Source: Cryptosporangium arvum DSM 44712
GTDB lineage: Bacteria > Actinomycetota > Actinomycetes > Mycobacteriales > Cryptosporangiaceae
DNA length: 64,000 nucleotides
NCBI RefSeq assembly: GCF_000585375.1
Contig: NZ_KK073874.1
Location: 6,974,894 to 7,038,893, forward strand
Direction of reading: 5' to 3'
Shown: in pieces, positions 17,760 through 24,307 of the stretch
How positions within the stretch are numbered: position 1 is the stretch's first letter
How the letters are laid out: each line of letters opens with the position of its first letter
Program-made: the position numbers and the translations under genes
Notes under the pieces: generated by a model
Told to the model about the DNA's origin: nothing
The model's database searches: none
Seen by the model: only the letters and a program-made list of their open reading frames with translations

Positions 17760-18565
17760 TCTCCGACGCGCACCGCCACCTCGGGGTCCTGCCCGCGTAC
17801 CCGTTCTACGGCGGGCCGCCGGTGCACCCCGACGTCACCGCCAGGGCGACGCTCGACGAGCTGGTCGCCGATCTCGACGCCGAGGGCACCGAGCGCGCCC
17901 TGGTCATCCCGAACTACGGCGTTCCCGACCCCGCCATCGCGTTCGGCTTCAACGAGCTCTGCGTCGAGGCCTCCCAGAAGGACGACCGGATCCGCGCCGG
18001 GCTGTGGGTCTCGGCCAAGGCCGCGGATGCCGAGCGCACCGCGCAGGCGCTGGAGCTGGCCGGTGAGCCCGGGGTCCGCGCGCTCAAGCTGAGCTTCCTG
18101 CTCGGCGGCACCGTCCACGACTCGCGTCCCGGCCTCGACCTGATCTTCTCCGCGGCCCGCGAGCACGACCTCACCGTGCACGTGCACACCTCCCCCGGCG
18201 CGGCGTCCGACGTCGACGAGATCACGAACCTCGTCGAGTGGTACGGCGACACCACCCGCCTGCACCTCGTGCACTTCGGCGGCGGGATGAGCGGCCACAT
18301 CAAGTTGCTCTCCGGCCGGTTCTTCGACTGGGTCACGGCCGGCAAGCAGGTCTACACCGACCTGTCCTGGGCGATCGGGTTCGCGCCGCGATGGCTCGCG
18401 GCCGAGATCGAGCGCCGCGGCGTCGGCCACGACCGGATCCTGTTCGCCAGCGACGAGCCCTGGGGCGACTTCGCCGGCGAGTACGCCCGCCTGAGAGCCG
18501 TCACCGGCGACGGCGAGCTCGGCACGCACGTCTTCACCAGCACCTTCGACACCCTCTACGGATAG
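17756..18565 (+). CDS. amidohydrolase family protein
   Basis: 269 aa, TIM-barrel metal-dependent hydrolase of the amidohydrolase-2 type. Metal-site residues are visible: DAHRH at 4-8, HVHT mid-chain, a following VHFGG, and the late Asp in [11 protein letters not shown] 17756 overlaps the oxidoreductase stop (ATGA), which decides the start; the frame remains open upstream but only as shadow sequence. The partner proteins suggest that it hydrolyses a C-N bond in a nitrogen-containing intermediate; the substrate cannot be named. This family is not part of the core set I know from cyanobacterial Nit1 clusters, so it may be a lineage-specific addition. Confidence 0.85.
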
Positions 18566-18573
18566 GACGAACG

Positions 18574-19101
18574 ATGACCACCGAGACGACCACCGCACTC
18601 ACCGAGGCCGAGCAGAAGTCGCTCACCGAGATCCCGCACCCGTCGCTGCCCGAGGGCAGCAGCATCTACGGCGGGACGAAGGTGTTCCCGGACTACCAGG
18701 CCGAGCCGGGCCAGTCGTACTTCACGCTCGTGCACGGCATCGCCCACGAGTCGTCGGTGAGCTTCGTGGCGATCCTGCAGGCGACGCGGGCCCAACGGAA
18801 GGGCTTCGAGTCGGCGATCTACTTCTACGGGCCGGGTTCGCTGAACTGCCTGGCCACCCGCGGTTTCCCGACGACGGGCAACTCGGCGTTCCCCGGCGAG
18901 CACAACATCAACGACTCGCTGAAGACGTTCATCGCCGAGGGCGGCAAGGTGTACTGCTGCCGGTTCGGGCTGTCGCTGCACGGGGCCCGCGAGGAGGACC
19001 TGATCGAGGGCGTCATCCCGACGCACCCGCTCGACGTCCAGGACGCGCTGATCCACTACGCACGCAAGGGCGCGATCATCAACTCCACCTACATGTTCTG
19101 A
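18574..19101 (+). CDS. MSMEG_0572/Sll0783 family nitrogen starvation response protein
   Basis: 175 aa. The sequence matches the Sll0783 pattern: GGTKVFPDYQ, VHGIAHESSVSF, the FYGPGSLNC segment, GFPTTGNSAFPGEHN, and the closing AIINSTYMF. It looks like a DsrE-type alpha/beta fold without a clear catalytic centre. It is one of the most conserved members of Nit1-type clusters. Sll0783 is induced by nitrogen starvation in cyanobacteria (family knowledge). ATG 18574 lies eight bases after the amidohydrolase stop, with GGACGA as a ribosome-binding site. The radical SAM gene follows after one base. Confidence 0.93.
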   Translation: MTTETTTALTEAEQKSLTEIPHPSLPEGSSIYGGTKVFPDYQAEPGQSYFTLVHGIAHESSVSFVAILQATRAQRKGFESAIYFYGPGSLNCLATRGFPTTGNSAFPGEHNINDSLKTFIAEGGKVYCCRFGLSLHGAREEDLIEGVIPTHPLDVQDALIHYARKGAIINSTYMF

Positions 19102-19102
19102 C

Positions 19103-20155
19103 ATGACCCTCGGCACGAGAGTCGACGTCGCCATCCGGGGTGTCCGCCTGGACGCCCCGGTGCGACGGGGAGACGGCGCGGGCCCCAGCGACGACGGACA
19201 CGTCGTGCTGGACGGAGCCGGCGCGGCGATCCCCCTGGTCCTGGACAGTCCCTACACCGCGCGCGACGGGCGCCTGCTCTACCTCGGCGAGGACACCGGT
19301 CTCTCGCTCGAACCGGTCCGCCGCCCGCGCTTCTACGACCTGGAGACCGCCGACGGCGTCCCCTACGAGAAGATCGCCCGGCTGCACGGCCGGGACGTGC
19401 TGGCGACCACCGTCGTCCAGACGTGCATCCGGTACGTCGAGGACCAGCGGTGCCGGTTCTGCACGATCGAGGAGTCGCTGCGGTCGGGCGCGACGATCGC
19501 GGCGAAGACCCCGGCGCAGCTGGCCGAGGTGGCGCAGGCCGCGGTGCGGCTGGACGGCGTCACCCAGCTGGTGCTGACCACCGGCACGACGACCGGCCCC
19601 GACCGGGGCGCGCGTAACCTCGTGCGCTGCGTGCGTGCCGTGCTCGACGCGGTGCCGGGGCTGCCGATCCAGGTCCAGATCGAACCGCCCGCCGACCTCG
19701 CGGTGCTCGGCGAGCTGAAGGACGCCGGGGCGACCGCGATCGGCATCCACGTCGAATCGCTCGACGACGACGTCCGCCGGGCGTGGATGCCCGGCAAGGG
19801 CAGCGTGCCGCTCGCCGAGTACGACGCCGCCTGGGACGAGGCCGTGCGTGTGTTCGGGCCGAACCGCGTGTCCACGTACCTGCTGGTCGGGTTGGGCGAG
19901 GATCCCGACGAGCTGGTCGCGGGGGCAGCGCGGCTGATCGAGCGGGGCGTCTACCCGTTCGTGGTGCCGTTCCGCCCGATGGCCGGGACGCTCGCCCGCC
20001 GGGACGGCGCGACCGCTCCGCCACCCTCGCTGGTGCGCGACGTCACCGCGCGCGTCGGCGCGCTCCTGCGGACGGCCGGGATGGCCGGCGCCGACCAGGG
20101 CGCCGGGTGCGCGGCCTGCGGTGCCTGCAGTGCCCTGCCCGCCGCCGGAGGCTGA
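19103..20155 (+). CDS. MSMEG_0568 family radical SAM protein
   Basis: 350 aa. The cluster-binding cysteines are C108, C117 and C120 in TCIRYVEDQRCRFC, giving CX8CX2C instead of the usual CX3CX2C. A biotin-synthase-like barrel follows (LVLTTGTTTGPDRG, IQVQIEPP, IGIHVESLDD, YLLVGLGEDPDE). Three cysteines at the extreme C-terminus (CAACGAC) could hold a second iron-sulphur cluster. It probably performs the key radical step on the intermediate processed by the nitrilase; the reaction is not established from sequence. The start is one base after the Sll0783-like stop. Confidence 0.92.
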   Translation: MTLGTRVDVAIRGVRLDAPVRRGDGAGPSDDGHVVLDGAGAAIPLVLDSPYTARDGRLLYLGEDTGLSLEPVRRPRFYDLETADGVPYEKIARLHGRDVLATTVVQTCIRYVEDQRCRFCTIEESLRSGATIAAKTPAQLAEVAQAAVRLDGVTQLVLTTGTTTGPDRGARNLVRCVRAVLDAVPGLPIQVQIEPPADLAVLGELKDAGATAIGIHVESLDDDVRRAWMPGKGSVPLAEYDAAWDEAVRVFGPNRVSTYLLVGLGEDPDELVAGAARLIERGVYPFVVPFRPMAGTLARRDGATAPPPSLVRDVTARVGALLRTAGMAGADQGAGCAACGACSALPAAGG

Positions 20156-20156
20156 G

Positions 20157-21551
20157 ATGAGACTGCTGGATGTCCCCACGCTCACCGGTGGACGCCGCCC
20201 GACGTTCACGATCGAGCGGGCCGAGGACCTCGACGGGTACCGCCGGCTGCGGCGGGCGGTGTTCGTCGAGGAGCAGGGGCTGTTCGCCGGGTCGGACCTC
20301 GACGACCGGGACGCCGACCCGCGCACCGTGGTGCTGCTCGCCCGGGACCGCGCGGGCACCGTCGTCGGCGGTGTCCGCCTAGGTCCGGCGACCGACGGCC
20401 CCGACCTGGGCTGGTGGACCGGGGGGCGGCTGGCCGTCGCCCCGCCCTGGCGCGCCACCACCGGCGTGGGGCCGGCGCTGGTGCGTGCCGCGTGTGCCTA
20501 CGCGGAGAACGCCGGCGTGCTGCGGTTCGACGCCACCGTGCAGCACCGGGCGGCCGGGATGTTCCGCCGGCTCGGGTGGGACACGGTGCGGCCGGTGACG
20601 GTCGCCGGGCGTCCGCACACGGTGATGCGGTGGCCGATCGGGCGGATCGCCGCGCTGGTGTCGGCCACCAAACGCGACCTGGGTGCGCTGTTGACCGGGC
20701 TCGCGCCGGGAGGCGCGGGCTGGGTCGGCGACGACGGCGCGCCGGTGCCCGGGTCGGACCTGGTCGCCGCCTGCGACGCGATCCTGCCCTCGATGGTGGA
20801 GCGCGACCCGGAGTGGGCCGGGTGGTGCGGCGTGCTCGTCAACGTCAACGACCTGTCCGCGATGGGCGCGACCCCGGTCGGTCTGCTCGACGCGCTCGGG
20901 GCCCGCGACCGGGCCTCCGCGGCCCGGGTGCTCGCCGGTGTCCGCGCCGCCGCGAACGCGTACGGCGCCCCGGTCCTCGGCGGCCACACCCAGCTGGGCG
21001 TCCCGGCCTCGTTGGCGATCACCGCACTGGGCACAGTCGACGGCTCACCCGTTCCGGGCGGCGGTGGAGCCCCGGGACACGAGGTGCGCCTCACCGTCGA
21101 CCTCGGCGGCGGTTGGCGCCCCGGCTACACCGGGCGGCAGTGGGACTCGAGTTCGACGCGGACGACCGCGGACCTGCGCGCGATGGGCGCCTTCGTCGGC
21201 GCGTACCGTCCGGCCGCCGCGAAGGACGTGTCGATGGCGGGTGTCGTCGGCACGCTCGGCATGCTCGCCGAGGCCGGCGGTTGCCGCGCGGTCCTCGACG
21301 TCGCGGCCGTGCCGCGTCCGGACGGCGTTCCGACCGGCGACTGGCTCACCTGCTTCCCGGGCTTCGGCATGCTCACCGCCGCGGCCCCGGACACCGGGCC
21401 GCCCACCGCCGGTCCCGCCACCACGGCGATCTGCGGCGCGCTGGAGACCGGATCCGGCGTCGCCCTCCGCTGGCCCGACGGCGAACTCACCGAGGCGATC
21501 GCCGCGGGTGTCACGAACCTCGGCGCCGCACACCCTCAGGAGGATCGATGA
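20157..21551 (+). CDS. MSMEG_0567-type GNAT plus Sll0787-type AIR synthase-like fusion protein
   Basis: 464 aa with two parts. Residues ~12-165 are a GNAT acyltransferase fold (YRRLRRAVFVEEQGLF, LARDRAGTVVGGVRLG, GVGPALVRAACAYAENAG). Residues ~170-460 resemble PurM/AIR synthase, an ATP-dependent amidine-forming fold (VNVNDLSAMGATPVGLLDAL, LGGHTQLGVPASL, KDVSMAGVVGTLGML). In cyanobacteria the two halves are separate genes of the same cluster (sll0786/sll0787, family knowledge), so the fusion supports joint action. ATG 20157 follows the radical SAM stop by one base. The end overlaps the nitrilase start (ATGA). Confidence 0.9.
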   Translation: MRLLDVPTLTGGRRPTFTIERAEDLDGYRRLRRAVFVEEQGLFAGSDLDDRDADPRTVVLLARDRAGTVVGGVRLGPATDGPDLGWWTGGRLAVAPPWRATTGVGPALVRAACAYAENAGVLRFDATVQHRAAGMFRRLGWDTVRPVTVAGRPHTVMRWPIGRIAALVSATKRDLGALLTGLAPGGAGWVGDDGAPVPGSDLVAACDAILPSMVERDPEWAGWCGVLVNVNDLSAMGATPVGLLDALGARDRASAARVLAGVRAAANAYGAPVLGGHTQLGVPASLAITALGTVDGSPVPGGGGAPGHEVRLTVDLGGGWRPGYTGRQWDSSSTRTTADLRAMGAFVGAYRPAAAKDVSMAGVVGTLGMLAEAGGCRAVLDVAAVPRPDGVPTGDWLTCFPGFGMLTAAAPDTGPPTAGPATTAICGALETGSGVALRWPDGELTEAIAAGVTNLGAAHPQEDR

Positions 21552-22384
21552 CCACCCTGACCATGGCCGCCGTCGCGGCGCCCTTCGATCGCGACCTGGA
21601 GTCGGACTTCGCGCGGATCGAGCAGCTCACCGAGAAGGCGCGCGCGGACGGCGTCGGGCTGCTGGCGTTGCCGGAGGCCGCGCTCGGCGGGTACCTCGCG
21701 AACCTGGACGGCGGGGCCGACGGACCGCCGGCGCTGGCGTTGGACGGCCCGGAGATCGCCCGGCTGGCCGCGATCGCCGGTGACCTGGTCGTGGTGGCCG
21801 GCTACTGCGAGATCACCGCCGACGGCACGAAGTACAACAGCGCGGTGTGCGTCACCGGCGACGGCGTCCTCGGCAACCACCGCAAGGTGCACCAGCCCCT
21901 CGCCGAGGACGCCTCGTACGGCGCGGGCGACCGGTTCACCGCGTTCGACACCCCGGTCGGCCGCCTCGGCACGATGATCTGTTACGACAAGGCGTTCCCG
22001 GAGTCCGCGCGGGCGCTGGCGCTGGACGGCGCGGAGATCATCGTCTGCGTCTCGGCCTGGCCGGGGAGCCGCACCAACCCGTCGAGCGACCTGACGCGCG
22101 ACCGTTGGAAACGGCGGTTCGACCTGTTCGACCAGGCGCGCGCCCTGGAGAACCAGGTGGTCTGGCTGTCGGCGAACCAGACCGGCACGTTCGGCTCGCT
22201 GCGTTTCGTCGGCAGCGCGAAGATCGTCGACCCGGGTGGGGACGTGGTGTCCGACACCGGCGTGGCCGGCGGCATGGCGGTCGCGTCGCTGGACGTCGGG
22301 CGGACGCTGGAGACCGCGCGCCGCGCGATGGGGCACCTCCGGGACCGCCGACCGGAGGCCTACCCTCCGGTGGTGACCGGTTAG
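21548..22384 (+). CDS. Nit1-type carbon-nitrogen hydrolase (nitrilase), catalytic triad intact
   Basis: 278-residue nitrilase-superfamily enzyme. The Glu-Lys-Cys triad is complete: E43 in LPEAALGGY, K113 in HRKVHQP and C145 in MICYDKAFPE. It should hydrolyse a nitrile or amide through a thioester intermediate. In the well-studied Nit1C clusters the equivalent nitrilase is needed for growth on cyanide-derived nitriles (family knowledge). ATG 21548 overlaps the upstream stop (ATGA). A paralogue that lacks two of the three catalytic residues follows ten bases downstream. Confidence 0.94.
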   Translation: MTTLTMAAVAAPFDRDLESDFARIEQLTEKARADGVGLLALPEAALGGYLANLDGGADGPPALALDGPEIARLAAIAGDLVVVAGYCEITADGTKYNSAVCVTGDGVLGNHRKVHQPLAEDASYGAGDRFTAFDTPVGRLGTMICYDKAFPESARALALDGAEIIVCVSAWPGSRTNPSSDLTRDRWKRRFDLFDQARALENQVVWLSANQTGTFGSLRFVGSAKIVDPGGDVVSDTGVAGGMAVASLDVGRTLETARRAMGHLRDRRPEAYPPVVTG

Positions 22385-22394
22385 CCTCGCACGC

Positions 22395-23219
22395 ATGGGC
22401 CTGATCCGGATCGCCGCGGTCTCCGCCCACTTCGGGCGCGACCTCGACCACGACCTCGACCGGATCGCCGGGCTGATCGGGACGGCCCGCGCGCAGGGCG
22501 TCCACCTGCTGGTGCTGCCCGACGCCGCGCTCGGCGGGTACCTCGCCGACCTGCGCGACCCCGACCCGGAGTCGCTGCCGCCGGCGATCGAGCTCGACGG
22601 ACCCCGGCTGACGCGGGTCGCCACGCTCGCCGCGGAGATGGTCGTCTGCCTCGGCGTCCGCGAGGCCGCCGGCGACCTGCGCTACAACACCGCGGTGTGC
22701 CTGTCCGGCGACGGTGTCCTCGGCACGCACCGCAAGGTGCACCAGCCGGCCGGCGAATCGATCGCGTACACCGCCGGCGACCGGTTCTCCGCCTTCGACA
22801 CCCCGGTCGGCCGGATCGGCATGCTCGTCGACTACGACAAGACGTTCCCGGAGTCCGCCCGCACGCTGGCCCTCGACGGGGCCGAGATCCTCGCCTGCCT
22901 CTCGGCCTGGCCCACGTCGATCACGAACCGGGCGCCGCGAATGGCCGACGACCGCCAGTCGCGGCTGTTCGACCTCTACGACTGCGCGCGGGCGGCGGAG
23001 AACCAGGTCGTGCTCGCCTCGTCGAACCAGACCGGCTCGCTGGGCGGGATGCGGTTCCTCGGCCAGGCCAAAGTGGTCGGTCCTGGCGGAGACGTCCTGG
23101 CGCGGACCTGGTCGAAGGCCGGCCTGGCGGTGGCCGAGCTCGACGTCGGCGCGGAGATCGCGCGGGCGCGCCGGGTGCTCGCGCACCTGTCCGAGCGGCG
23201 ACCGGGGGCCTACGCGTGA
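22395..23219 (+). CDS. nitrilase-superfamily pseudoenzyme paralogue
   Basis: 274 aa, aligned end to end with the preceding nitrilase (same LP-AALGGYLA, VLG-HRKVHQP, DKTFPESARTLALDGAEI and ENQVV segments). The catalytic Glu is Asp (D43 in LPDAALGGY), the Lys is kept (K114) and the nucleophilic Cys is Asp (D146 in MLVDYDK). Without the Cys it cannot form the usual thioester. The surface motifs of the fold are well preserved and there are no frameshifts, so the protein appears to be under selection. A structural or regulatory partner of the active nitrilase is the simplest inference. The end overlaps the glycosyltransferase start (GTGA). Confidence 0.9.
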   Translation: MGLIRIAAVSAHFGRDLDHDLDRIAGLIGTARAQGVHLLVLPDAALGGYLADLRDPDPESLPPAIELDGPRLTRVATLAAEMVVCLGVREAAGDLRYNTAVCLSGDGVLGTHRKVHQPAGESIAYTAGDRFSAFDTPVGRIGMLVDYDKTFPESARTLALDGAEILACLSAWPTSITNRAPRMADDRQSRLFDLYDCARAAENQVVLASSNQTGSLGGMRFLGQAKVVGPGGDVLARTWSKAGLAVAELDVGAEIARARRVLAHLSERRPGAYA

Positions 23220-24307
23220 GGGTCGCGCTCCTGACCTACTCGACGAAGCCGCGTGGCGGTGTGGTGCACACGCTCGCGCTGGCCGAGGCGCTCGCCGCGC
23301 TCGACGTCGACGTGACCGTCTGGACGCTCGGGCGCGGTGGGGACGGCGGGTTCTTCCGGGCCGTCGACCCGGCGGTGACGGTCCGGGTCGTGCCGTTCGA
23401 GGCGTCGGACCAGGAGTCGGTCGGGGAACGGATCCTGCGGTCGATCTCGACGCTCCGGGCGGCCTTCGACGCGTCGCGGTACGACGTCGTGCACGCCCAG
23501 GACTGCATCAGCGCGAACGCGGTCCGCGGGACCCCCTACGTCCGCACCGTGCACCACCTGGACACGTTCACGACGCCGGAACTCGCCGCCTGCCACGAAC
23601 GCGCGATCGTCGAGCCGGCCGCGCACGTCTGCGTGTCCGCGGCCGTCGCGGCCGAGGTACACGCCGGGTGGGGGTACTCGCCCACGGTCATCCCCAACGG
23701 GGTCGACGCCGCGCGGTTCGCCTCCGCCGACGCCGGCGACCCGGCCGGGCTGGGGCGCTACGTGCTGGCGGTGGGCGGCATCGAGCCGCGGAAGGGGTCG
23801 ATCGCGCTGCTCGAGGCGTACGCGCAGCTCGCGCGGCCGGACGTGGGGCTGGTGTTCGCGGGCGGCGAGACGCTGTTCGACTACCGGGCGTACCGGGAGA
23901 CCTGGGAGGCGCGGGCCGCGGCGCTGGGGGTCGCGCCGATCGTGCTCGGGCCGGTCGGCCACGAGGCGCTGCCGTCGCTGATGGCCTCGGCCGCGGTGTT
24001 CGCGTTCCCCTCCACCAAGGAGGGCTTCGGCCTGGCCGCGATGGAGGCGCTGGCAGCCGGGGTCCCGGTGGTCACCAGCGACCTCCCGGTGCTGCGCGAG
24101 GTCTTCGGGGCGGCCGTCCGCTACGCCGCCGACGTCGACGCGCTCGCCGCCGCCCTCGCCGACGCGCTGGACCACGGCACGGACCCCGACGCCGGCCGCG
24201 CGCTCGCCGCCCGTTACACGTGGGCGGCGGCCGCCTCCGCGCATCTCGACTTCTACCGTCGTTTCCGGGGTGTCCGGCGCGCGCTCAGCCCGGCCCGCTT
24301 CGCCTAG
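23216..24307 (+). CDS. MSMEG_0565 family glycosyltransferase
   Basis: 363 aa, GT-B fold of the GT4 family. It opens with LLTYSTKPRGGVVHTLALAEAL, a pattern characteristic of this cluster-specific family, and has the acceptor/donor elements VIPNGVD, VGGIEPRKG and the nucleotide-sugar motif EGFGLAAMEALAAG near the C-terminus. It starts at GTG 23216 inside the preceding stop, last gene of the operon. It ends three bases short of the convergent PPK2 gene. It presumably glycosylates the product made by the rest of the operon; sugar and acceptor are unknown. Confidence 0.92.
   Translation: MRVALLTYSTKPRGGVVHTLALAEALAALDVDVTVWTLGRGGDGGFFRAVDPAVTVRVVPFEASDQESVGERILRSISTLRAAFDASRYDVVHAQDCISANAVRGTPYVRTVHHLDTFTTPELAACHERAIVEPAAHVCVSAAVAAEVHAGWGYSPTVIPNGVDAARFASADAGDPAGLGRYVLAVGGIEPRKGSIALLEAYAQLARPDVGLVFAGGETLFDYRAYRETWEARAAALGVAPIVLGPVGHEALPSLMASAAVFAFPSTKEGFGLAAMEALAAGVPVVTSDLPVLREVFGAAVRYAADVDALAAALADALDHGTDPDAGRALAARYTWAAAASAHLDFYRRFRGVRRALSPARFA

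What the first reader, a model, noticed from the sequence alone, without database searches (positions are those of the whole stretch)
21548..23219. Nitrilase paired with a catalytically dead twin in a Nit1-type operon
The first nitrilase has the full Glu43-Lys113-Cys145 triad. The second, ten bases later, keeps the fold motifs and the Lys, but Glu is Asp (D43) and Cys is Asp (D146). The reading frame is intact and its surface motifs are kept, so it looks selected rather than decaying. Nitrilases work as spirals or dimers, so the twin may form a mixed oligomer, tune the active subunit, or bind the substrate or product as a sensor. I do not know a described case in this cluster type.
Basis: partly seen in the sequence, partly recalled or inferred. 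Interest (0 to 1): 0.75.

Follow-up and report, generated by a model that had tools for sequence, protein, structure and literature searches.

The report
Conserved cysteine-to-aspartate nitrilase-like twin
Beside a normal-looking nitrilase-type enzyme, this bacterium carries a sister protein whose catalytic cysteine has become aspartate, and the same change recurs in related clusters across many actinobacteria, so it is a selected protein with a job of its own and not a decaying copy.

Summary
The active protein (window 21548-22384) has E43-K113-C145; the twin (22395-23219) has D43, K114, D146. The twin belongs to a lineage with one origin inside Actinomycetota (tree support 100/95). In a similarity-based class sample, 33 of 394 genomes have a twin, and all 33 keep Asp at the cysteine position, Lys and the second catalytic Glu; only the first Glu is relaxed (D 25, G 7, Q 1). 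Across 74 loci the twin is slightly more constrained than its partner (dN/dS 0.20 against 0.23), though not within the window's own genus. Sequencing error and decay are excluded. The mixed-oligomer idea is untested and somewhat weakened: the gene directly after the twin is the MSMEG_0565 glycosyltransferase in 31 of 33, while the active gene directly adjoins it in 10 of 33, and one genome keeps a twin with neither. Neither protein is a true Nit1/Nit6803 nitrilase (0 of 12 genomes over the TIGR04048 cut-off). Best reading: a non-thioester paralogue whose rebuilt Lys-Glu-Asp pocket binds or transforms an intermediate of the MSMEG_0565-0572 pathway. Function is inferred, not shown.

The parts
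21548..22384 (+). Active partner: CN_hydrolase with E43 (21674-21676), K113 (21884-21886), E120 and C145 (21980-21982)
   Evidence: E, K, E, C in 106 of 106 aligned members
22395..23219 (+). Twin: Cys-less CN_hydrolase paralogue with D43, K114, E121, D146
22521..22523 (+). Twin codon 43 (GAC), the catalytic Glu of relatives
   Evidence: class sample D 25, G 7, Q 1 of 33; D 102, G 4, H 1 of 107 aligned rows
22734..22736 (+). Twin codon 114, retained catalytic Lys
   Evidence: 33 of 33 in the class sample; 107 of 107 aligned rows
22755..22757 (+). Twin codon 121, retained second catalytic Glu
   Evidence: 33 of 33 in the class sample; 106 Glu and 1 Asp of 107 aligned rows
22830..22832 (+). Twin codon 146 (GAC), the nucleophilic Cys of relatives
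   Evidence: Asp in 33 of 33 in the class sample and 107 of 107 aligned rows
23216..24307 (+). MSMEG_0565 family glycosyltransferase; its GTG start overlaps the twin's stop
   Evidence: TIGR04047 437.7 bits, cut-off 259.85; directly downstream of the twin in 31 of 33 class genomes
20157..21551 (+). MSMEG_0567 protein, GNAT fused to AIR-synthase-like domain; stop overlaps the active partner's start
   Evidence: TIGR04050 460.5 bits (cut-off 312.2) and TIGR04045 105 bits (cut-off 68.45)
19103..20155 (+). MSMEG_0568 family radical SAM protein
   Evidence: TIGR04043 488.6 bits, cut-off 303.7
18574..19101 (+). MSMEG_0572/Sll0783 family nitrogen starvation response protein
   Evidence: TIGR04044 252.1 bits, cut-off 109.85
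17756..18565 (+). Amidohydrolase (Amidohydro_2)
   Evidence: PF04909 54.7 bits, cut-off 26.4
16431..17759 (+). MSMEG_0569 family flavin-dependent oxidoreductase
   Evidence: TIGR04046 624.7 bits, cut-off 498.35

Best explanation
The twin is a paralogue of the active amidase/nitrilase-like enzyme, made by duplication and one Cys-to-Asp replacement early in Actinomycetota (single origin shown by tree and alignments; the date is inferred from a twin in another class). It cannot form the Cys thioester of the nitrilase superfamily (follows from the known mechanism, recalled). Its fold and most of its active-site segments are kept under purifying selection (shown; the fold by prediction). Its Lys and second Glu are kept and Asp146 is invariant in what was read, while the first Glu is free to be Asp, Gly, Gln or His (shown). 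The most likely meaning is a rebuilt Lys-Glu-Asp pocket in which the new carboxylate replaces both the nucleophile and the old general base (inferred). The pocket then binds, shields or non-hydrolytically transforms an intermediate of the MSMEG_0565-0572 pathway, at or just before the glycosyltransferase step, because the twin nearly always stays next to that gene (inferred). Dimers with itself or with the active partner are possible and untested.
For: Single origin: 37 twin rows, one from another class, are one clade at 100/95. Class sample found by similarity: Asp, Lys and second Glu in 33 of 33, first Glu position D 25, G 7, Q 1. Larger alignment: D146 107/107, K114 107/107, E121 106/107. 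Median dN/dS 0.202 twin, 0.234 active over 2562 non-independent pairs from 74 loci. In 51 thinned paired loci the twin is about as conserved as the active protein or more so in the E43, K/E and C/D segments (0.19/0.36, 0.54/0.53, 0.17/0.22 bits). Confident model with the nitrilase fold (pLDDT 89.6, pTM 0.90; nearest solved folds N-carbamoylputrescine amidohydrolase and Pyrococcus amidase/nitrilase). Glycosyltransferase directly downstream in 31 of 33 class genomes and 80 of 80 close relatives. Lone twin in G032 keeps D-K-E-D.
Against: No ligand, reaction or partner is shown. 16 of 48 class genomes with the active gene and the glycosyltransferase have no twin, so the pathway can run without it; in the genus 2 of 4 genomes have the pair. 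In G335 the twin is followed by the flavoprotein and the glycosyltransferase lies on another contig. Between the window and its genus relative G003, dN/dS is higher in the twin (0.093/0.379, about 0.24) than in the active gene (0.095/0.507, about 0.19). Distance correlations do not single out the glycosyltransferase: partial values for the twin are 0.26 with active, 0.26 with glycosyltransferase, 0.29 with Sll0783-like. 32 of 33 class genomes with a twin also hold the active gene, which fits a partner role too.
Confidence: 0.5

Rival explanations
1. Prozyme-type partner: the twin is a catalytically dead subunit that forms mixed dimers or spirals with the active protein and activates, stabilises or regulates it.
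For: In the window and in all 80 close relatives the active gene directly precedes the twin in the list of cluster genes. The twin occurs with the active gene in 32 of 33 class genomes that have a twin. The stretch that carries DRQSRLFDLYD is very conserved in the twin (0.27 bits against 0.52).
Against: The two genes directly adjoin in only 10 of 33 class genomes. 16 class genomes have the active gene without a twin. One lone twin exists. Catalytic Lys and second Glu are kept in the twin, which a subunit role alone does not need.
Confidence: 0.3
2. Active enzyme with new chemistry: Asp146 acts as nucleophile or general base in place of Cys, so the twin catalyses a different reaction on the same class of substrate.
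For: Asp is invariant, not one of several replacements, and Lys114 and Glu121 are kept. The old general base position is relaxed, as expected if Asp146 took over.
Against: No nitrilase-superfamily enzyme with an Asp nucleophile is recalled; the geometry was not measured because no coordinates were available; no substrate is known.
Confidence: 0.25
3. Decaying duplicate or sequencing error.
For: The loss of catalytic residues itself; absence of the pair from 2 of 4 genus genomes.
Against: Two-base codon difference; Asp in 33 of 33 class genomes with a twin; dN/dS about 0.2; twin at least as conserved as the active copy.
Confidence: 0.01

Closest known systems
MSMEG_0565-0572 (gpr) cluster of Mycobacterium smegmatis
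   Same: Five window genes score over the cut-offs of NCBIfam families named after it: MSMEG_0565, 0567, 0568, 0569 and 0572. In the clusters of four same-order genomes (L036, L040, L041, L043) the twin lies between the MSMEG_0567-like and the MSMEG_0565-like gene, the place of MSMEG_0566, which is called aliphatic amidase in PMC4617892 and PMC6039565 (passages).
   Different: The passages seen do not mention loss of the cysteine. MSMEG_0566 itself was not read here, so its identity as a twin is an inference from gene order.
Nit1C cluster with Nit6803/NitC nitrilase (Podar 2005, PMC1199592, passages; Pseudomonas nit1C, PMC11049912, passages)
   Same: Shares YchN-like (Sll0783), radical SAM, GNAT, AIR-synthase-like and flavoprotein genes.
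   Different: No subfamily 1 nitrilase in the window's cluster; the active/twin pair of another superfamily branch stands instead. 0 of 12 genomes with this cluster type or the lone twin exceed the TIGR04048 cut-off, while 1 of 14 control genomes does.
Pyrococcus amidase PH0642 (1j31, 6ypa), hyperthermophilic nitrilase (3ivz) and N-carbamoylputrescine amidohydrolase (5h8i-5h8l)
   Same: Closest solved relatives of the twin by sequence (E 2.8e-23 to 3.2e-22 for the first four entries, 6.4e-18 and 1.7e-17 for the amidohydrolase) and by fold.
   Different: 1j31 has the catalytic Cys (alignment); the Cys-less entries named are laboratory variants (C146A, C158S), not a natural Asp.
Pseudoenzyme partners (prozymes)
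   Same: A paralogue that lost a catalytic residue and is kept beside the active form.
   Different: Known examples are recalled, not tested; here no interaction is shown, and the pocket residues are largely kept.

Membership tests
Nitrilase superfamily (Pfam CN_hydrolase fold) | Profile match and fold of the family | tested here: met
   PF00795 116.6 bits against 23.2; predicted model matches solved members
Catalytically competent nitrilase superfamily member | Glu-Lys-Cys triad | tested here: not met
   Twin D43-K114-D146; Asp in 33 of 33 class genomes with a twin
Nit6803/Nit1 nitrilase (TIGR04048) | Score over the curated cut-off 502.6 | tested here: not met
   32.8 and 34.8 bits; 0 of 12 genomes over cut-off
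MSMEG_0565-0572 type cluster | MSMEG_0565, 0567, 0568, 0569 and 0572 family genes together | tested here: met
   TIGR04047, 04050, 04043, 04046 over cut-off; TIGR04044 over cut-off
Nit1C cluster in the strict sense | Contains a subfamily 1 nitrilase | tested here: not met
   with TIGR04048 taken as the measure of subfamily 1; definition from passages of PMC1199592
Pseudoenzyme | Loss of a residue needed for the family's chemistry, kept under selection | tested here: met
Pseudoenzyme | No catalytic activity | not testable with these tools
   Needs purified protein
Prozyme-type regulatory subunit | Physical complex with the active paralogue that changes its activity | not testable with these tools
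   Structure jobs take one chain and both were used

The most novel reading that the evidence does not exclude
A widespread actinobacterial nitrilase-fold enzyme in which Asp has taken over from Cys, giving a Lys-Glu-Asp active site with a new, non-thioester reaction, tied to the glycosyltransferase step of the uncharacterised nitrogen-starvation pathway MSMEG_0565-0572.
Probability: 0.25. Interest if true: 0.8.

Novelty: new variant of a known kind. Interest (0 to 1): 0.6.

Why it matters
Both members of the pair are annotated alike as carbon-nitrogen hydrolase family protein in the one annotated record examined (Rhodococcus), and gene order suggests that M. smegmatis MSMEG_0566, called an aliphatic amidase, is the Cys-less form. 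If so, an operon induced by nitrogen starvation that protects cells from peroxide (abstract and passages of PMC6039565) holds a protein that is misread. The twin also gives a natural, old and conserved Cys-to-Asp nitrilase-fold family in which to ask what the fold can do without its nucleophile, and a direct handle on a pathway whose product is, as far as the passages seen go, unknown.

Tried and rejected
Sequencing error and decay: rejected.

Strain-specific event: rejected. Twin-clade proteins are in a second species of the genus at 85%, in 33 of 394 class genomes (32 with the active gene, 1 without) and in a genome of another class (L144). All 33 class twins were read: the window's, 29 loci L015-L043 and G150, G026, G335. 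All 16 genomes with the active type alone were fetched (13, 3) and keep E-K-C.

Deeper relatives with an intact triad (L145, L146, L148, L152) as the direct sister of the twin: not settled; they share Q at the DRQ position (4 of 4) but form their own clade, and twin plus these are one side of a branch in 18% of 200 bootstrap trees.

Distance (mirror-tree) correlation to find the twin's partner: inconclusive. GlnR box: a recalled consensus gave 0 matches in the window against 3.2 expected by chance; inconclusive. TIGR04048 as the identity of the pair: not met.

Literature: 'nitrilase' with 'pseudoenzyme' gave 2 papers, judged unrelated from titles and abstract starts; a five-term search gave 0; phrases for a missing or replaced catalytic cysteine gave 8, none on this by titles and abstract starts; a broader search gave 109, of which 15 were listed, none on this. 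Papers outside the open library could not be seen.

Biases and dropped rows. The 80 GTDB loci are the best 80 of 543 relatives, and one of the two search patterns itself contained the Asp and the other the Lys; their residue counts, which make up most of the 107 aligned rows, are therefore partly circular, and the class sample found by similarity is the fair count. One short active fragment (L108) was left out. Near-identical rows were thinned for the tree and for entropy (51 of 91 pairs kept), and rests mostly on close relatives.
Full report
Observation. Two CN_hydrolase genes stand ten bases apart, 21548-22384 (278 aa) and 22395-23219 (274 aa). The first has E43, K113, C145; the second has D43, K114, D146. 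Both match Pfam CN_hydrolase far above the cut-off. The codons at the nucleophile position are TGT and GAC, two bases apart.

Surroundings. The pair lies in an eight-gene run on the + strand: MSMEG_0569 flavoprotein, Amidohydro_2 protein, MSMEG_0572/Sll0783 protein, MSMEG_0568 radical SAM protein, MSMEG_0567 protein, active, twin, MSMEG_0565 glycosyltransferase. The active gene's start overlaps the MSMEG_0567 stop and the glycosyltransferase's start overlaps the twin's stop. Neither protein reaches the Nit6803/Nit1 cut-off, and none of 12 genomes tested does, while 1 of 14 control genomes does (the best of the 12 is a gene of genus relative G003 on another contig, 178 bits). So the cluster is of MSMEG_0565-0572 type but holds no true Nit1 nitrilase.

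Distribution. In the genus 2 of 4 genomes have the pair: the window's and G003, whose twin is 85% identical with the same D43 and D146; the genome of a second genus of the family has no match at 1e-40. In 394 genomes of the class, 49 match at E up to 1e-50: 32 have both proteins, 16 the active type alone, 1 (G032) the twin alone. The glycosyltransferase is found in 48 of the 394, the same genomes less G032. A scan of GTDB genome contigs found 543 relatives; the best 80 were kept, and all 80 hold active, twin and glycosyltransferase in this order. In a phylum sample (396 genomes, 9 matched at 1e-60) one genome of another class has a twin next to the glycosyltransferase, with D in place of C (L144/L158). 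Matches also lie on 4 Rhodococcus plasmid records; in the one examined the cluster lies between IS3 family transposase genes and both proteins are annotated as carbon-nitrogen hydrolase family protein, with D in the twin and C in the partner.

Residues. The fair count is the class sample, found by whole-protein similarity. In 33 of 33 twins the nucleophile position is D, the Lys is K and the second Glu is E; the first Glu is D in 25, G in 7 and Q in 1. In a larger set of 107 aligned rows D is 107, K 107, second Glu 106 (D in 1), first Glu D 102, G 4, H 1; in 106 active rows E, K, E and C are invariant. Most of the 107 come from the pattern-based scan, one pattern of which contains the Asp and the other the Lys, so this larger count is partly circular. 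Other positions that separate the clades include Q188 (mostly W in active), L191 (R), A201 (mostly L) and W239 (mostly G).

Tree. With 86 rows the 37 twins form one clade at 100/95; without the members from other classes support was 94/87 and 93 by SH-aLRT in a quick tree. One origin of the Cys-to-Asp change is the simplest reading. Four deeper relatives keep E-K-C and no cluster gene was found in the stretches fetched round them, one of which starts at a contig end.

Selection. Over 2562 pairs from 74 loci, median dN/dS is 0.202 twin, 0.234 active, 0.224 radical SAM, 0.239 glycosyltransferase; the twin's dN is below the active's in 2401 of 2562 pairs. The pairs are not independent. Against this, between the window and G003 the ratio is about 0.24 for the twin and 0.19 for the active gene. 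In 51 thinned paired loci mean column entropy is 0.59 bits (twin) and 0.70 (active); of 119 columns nearly invariant in the active protein, 100 are nearly invariant in the twin. Segments round the three catalytic sites are about as conserved as in the enzyme or more so. The exception among the other segments compared is 55-80, where the twin varies more (1.10 against 0.86).

Gene order. Of the 33 class genomes with a twin, the glycosyltransferase is the gene directly downstream in 31: the window, 28 of 29 loci, and G150 and G026. In G335 the flavoprotein follows and the glycosyltransferase lies on another contig; in G032 no cluster gene is near. Upstream, the active gene directly adjoins in 10 (window, 8 of 29, G335), the flavoprotein in 17 (16 of 29, G150) and the MSMEG_0567-like gene in 4; in G026 about 1.5 kb separates active and twin; G032 has none. 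The steady neighbour is thus the glycosyltransferase. This speaks against reading the ten-base spacing in the window as a sign of a mixed oligomer, though it does not exclude one.

Structure. Single-chain models of twin and active are confident (pLDDT 89.6 and 91.1) with much the same order of elements; D146 opens the helix that C145 opens in the active model. The closest solved folds are N-carbamoylputrescine amidohydrolase and the Pyrococcus amidase/nitrilase group.

Mechanism. Without Cys the thioester route of the superfamily is closed (established mechanism, recalled). That Lys and the second Glu stay fixed, Asp is fixed and the first Glu is relaxed suggests that the new carboxylate makes a working pocket with Lys. 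I put the pocket reading at 0.5 overall and count new catalysis as a bolder form of it (0.25); a partner subunit is the main rival (0.3). These readings overlap, so the numbers need not add to one.

Literature. The cluster is known in M. smegmatis as a GlnR-induced operon needed for peroxide resistance under nitrogen starvation and linked to it in biofilms; the authors state that they could not identify the single genes responsible (PMC6039565, abstract and passages). MSMEG_0571 and MSMEG_0566 are both up under nitrogen limitation, 4.06 and 2.96 fold (PMC4617892, one passage). I found no report of a Cys-less member in the searches (5 of 1,418 listed; 15 of 109 listed; 15 of 18 listed; 10 of 137 listed) and 75, within an open-licence library only.

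Noticed in passing
L003 1420-2262 (own genome, contig position about 8148460-8149179, minus strand); also L008, L009, L013: A second, unlinked paralogue of the active type in 4 of 4 genus genomes. All four copies lost the catalytic Lys and its loop, and the other triad positions differ (C 2, G 1, S 1; E 2, D 1, G 1), yet dN/dS over the six pairs is about 0.10-0.16. It lies divergent to a TetR regulator (found in 4 of 4 loci) with a 4HBT thioesterase beyond (3 of 4; the fourth locus ends before it).
   Followed up: partly
L044-L052, L054, L056 (unnamed class genomes): Eleven clusters without the twin in which no MSMEG_0569-type gene was detected in the fetched stretch. In the four looked at (L044, L046, L049, L054) another FAD-protein-like frame stands between the active gene and the glycosyltransferase; the one scanned matches FAD_binding_3.
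   Followed up: partly
L145, L146, L148, L152: Relatives in other classes of the phylum with intact E-K-C but Q at the DRQ position as in the twin; no cluster genes in the stretches fetched round them (L155, L156, L157, L159).
   Followed up: partly
L063 9342-10205 (G032): A lone twin with no active partner, glycosyltransferase or radical SAM match in that genome.
   Followed up: partly
L161 (Rhodococcus qingshengii plasmid pLP1): The cluster on a plasmid typed as mobilizable, between IS3 family transposase genes.
   Followed up: no
L164 and L165 (G335): The one class cluster read in which the twin is followed by the flavoprotein instead of the glycosyltransferase, and in which the first Glu position of the twin is Gln.
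   Followed up: no
Active gene, window 21548-22384 and relatives: PMC6039565 (passage) proposes that MSMEG_0571 is read through a UGA into a selenoprotein with the flavoprotein. In the window and most of the 80 GTDB clusters the two genes are separate and the flavoprotein gene stands at the far end of the cluster, which makes a general role for such read-through unlikely (inference).
   Followed up: no
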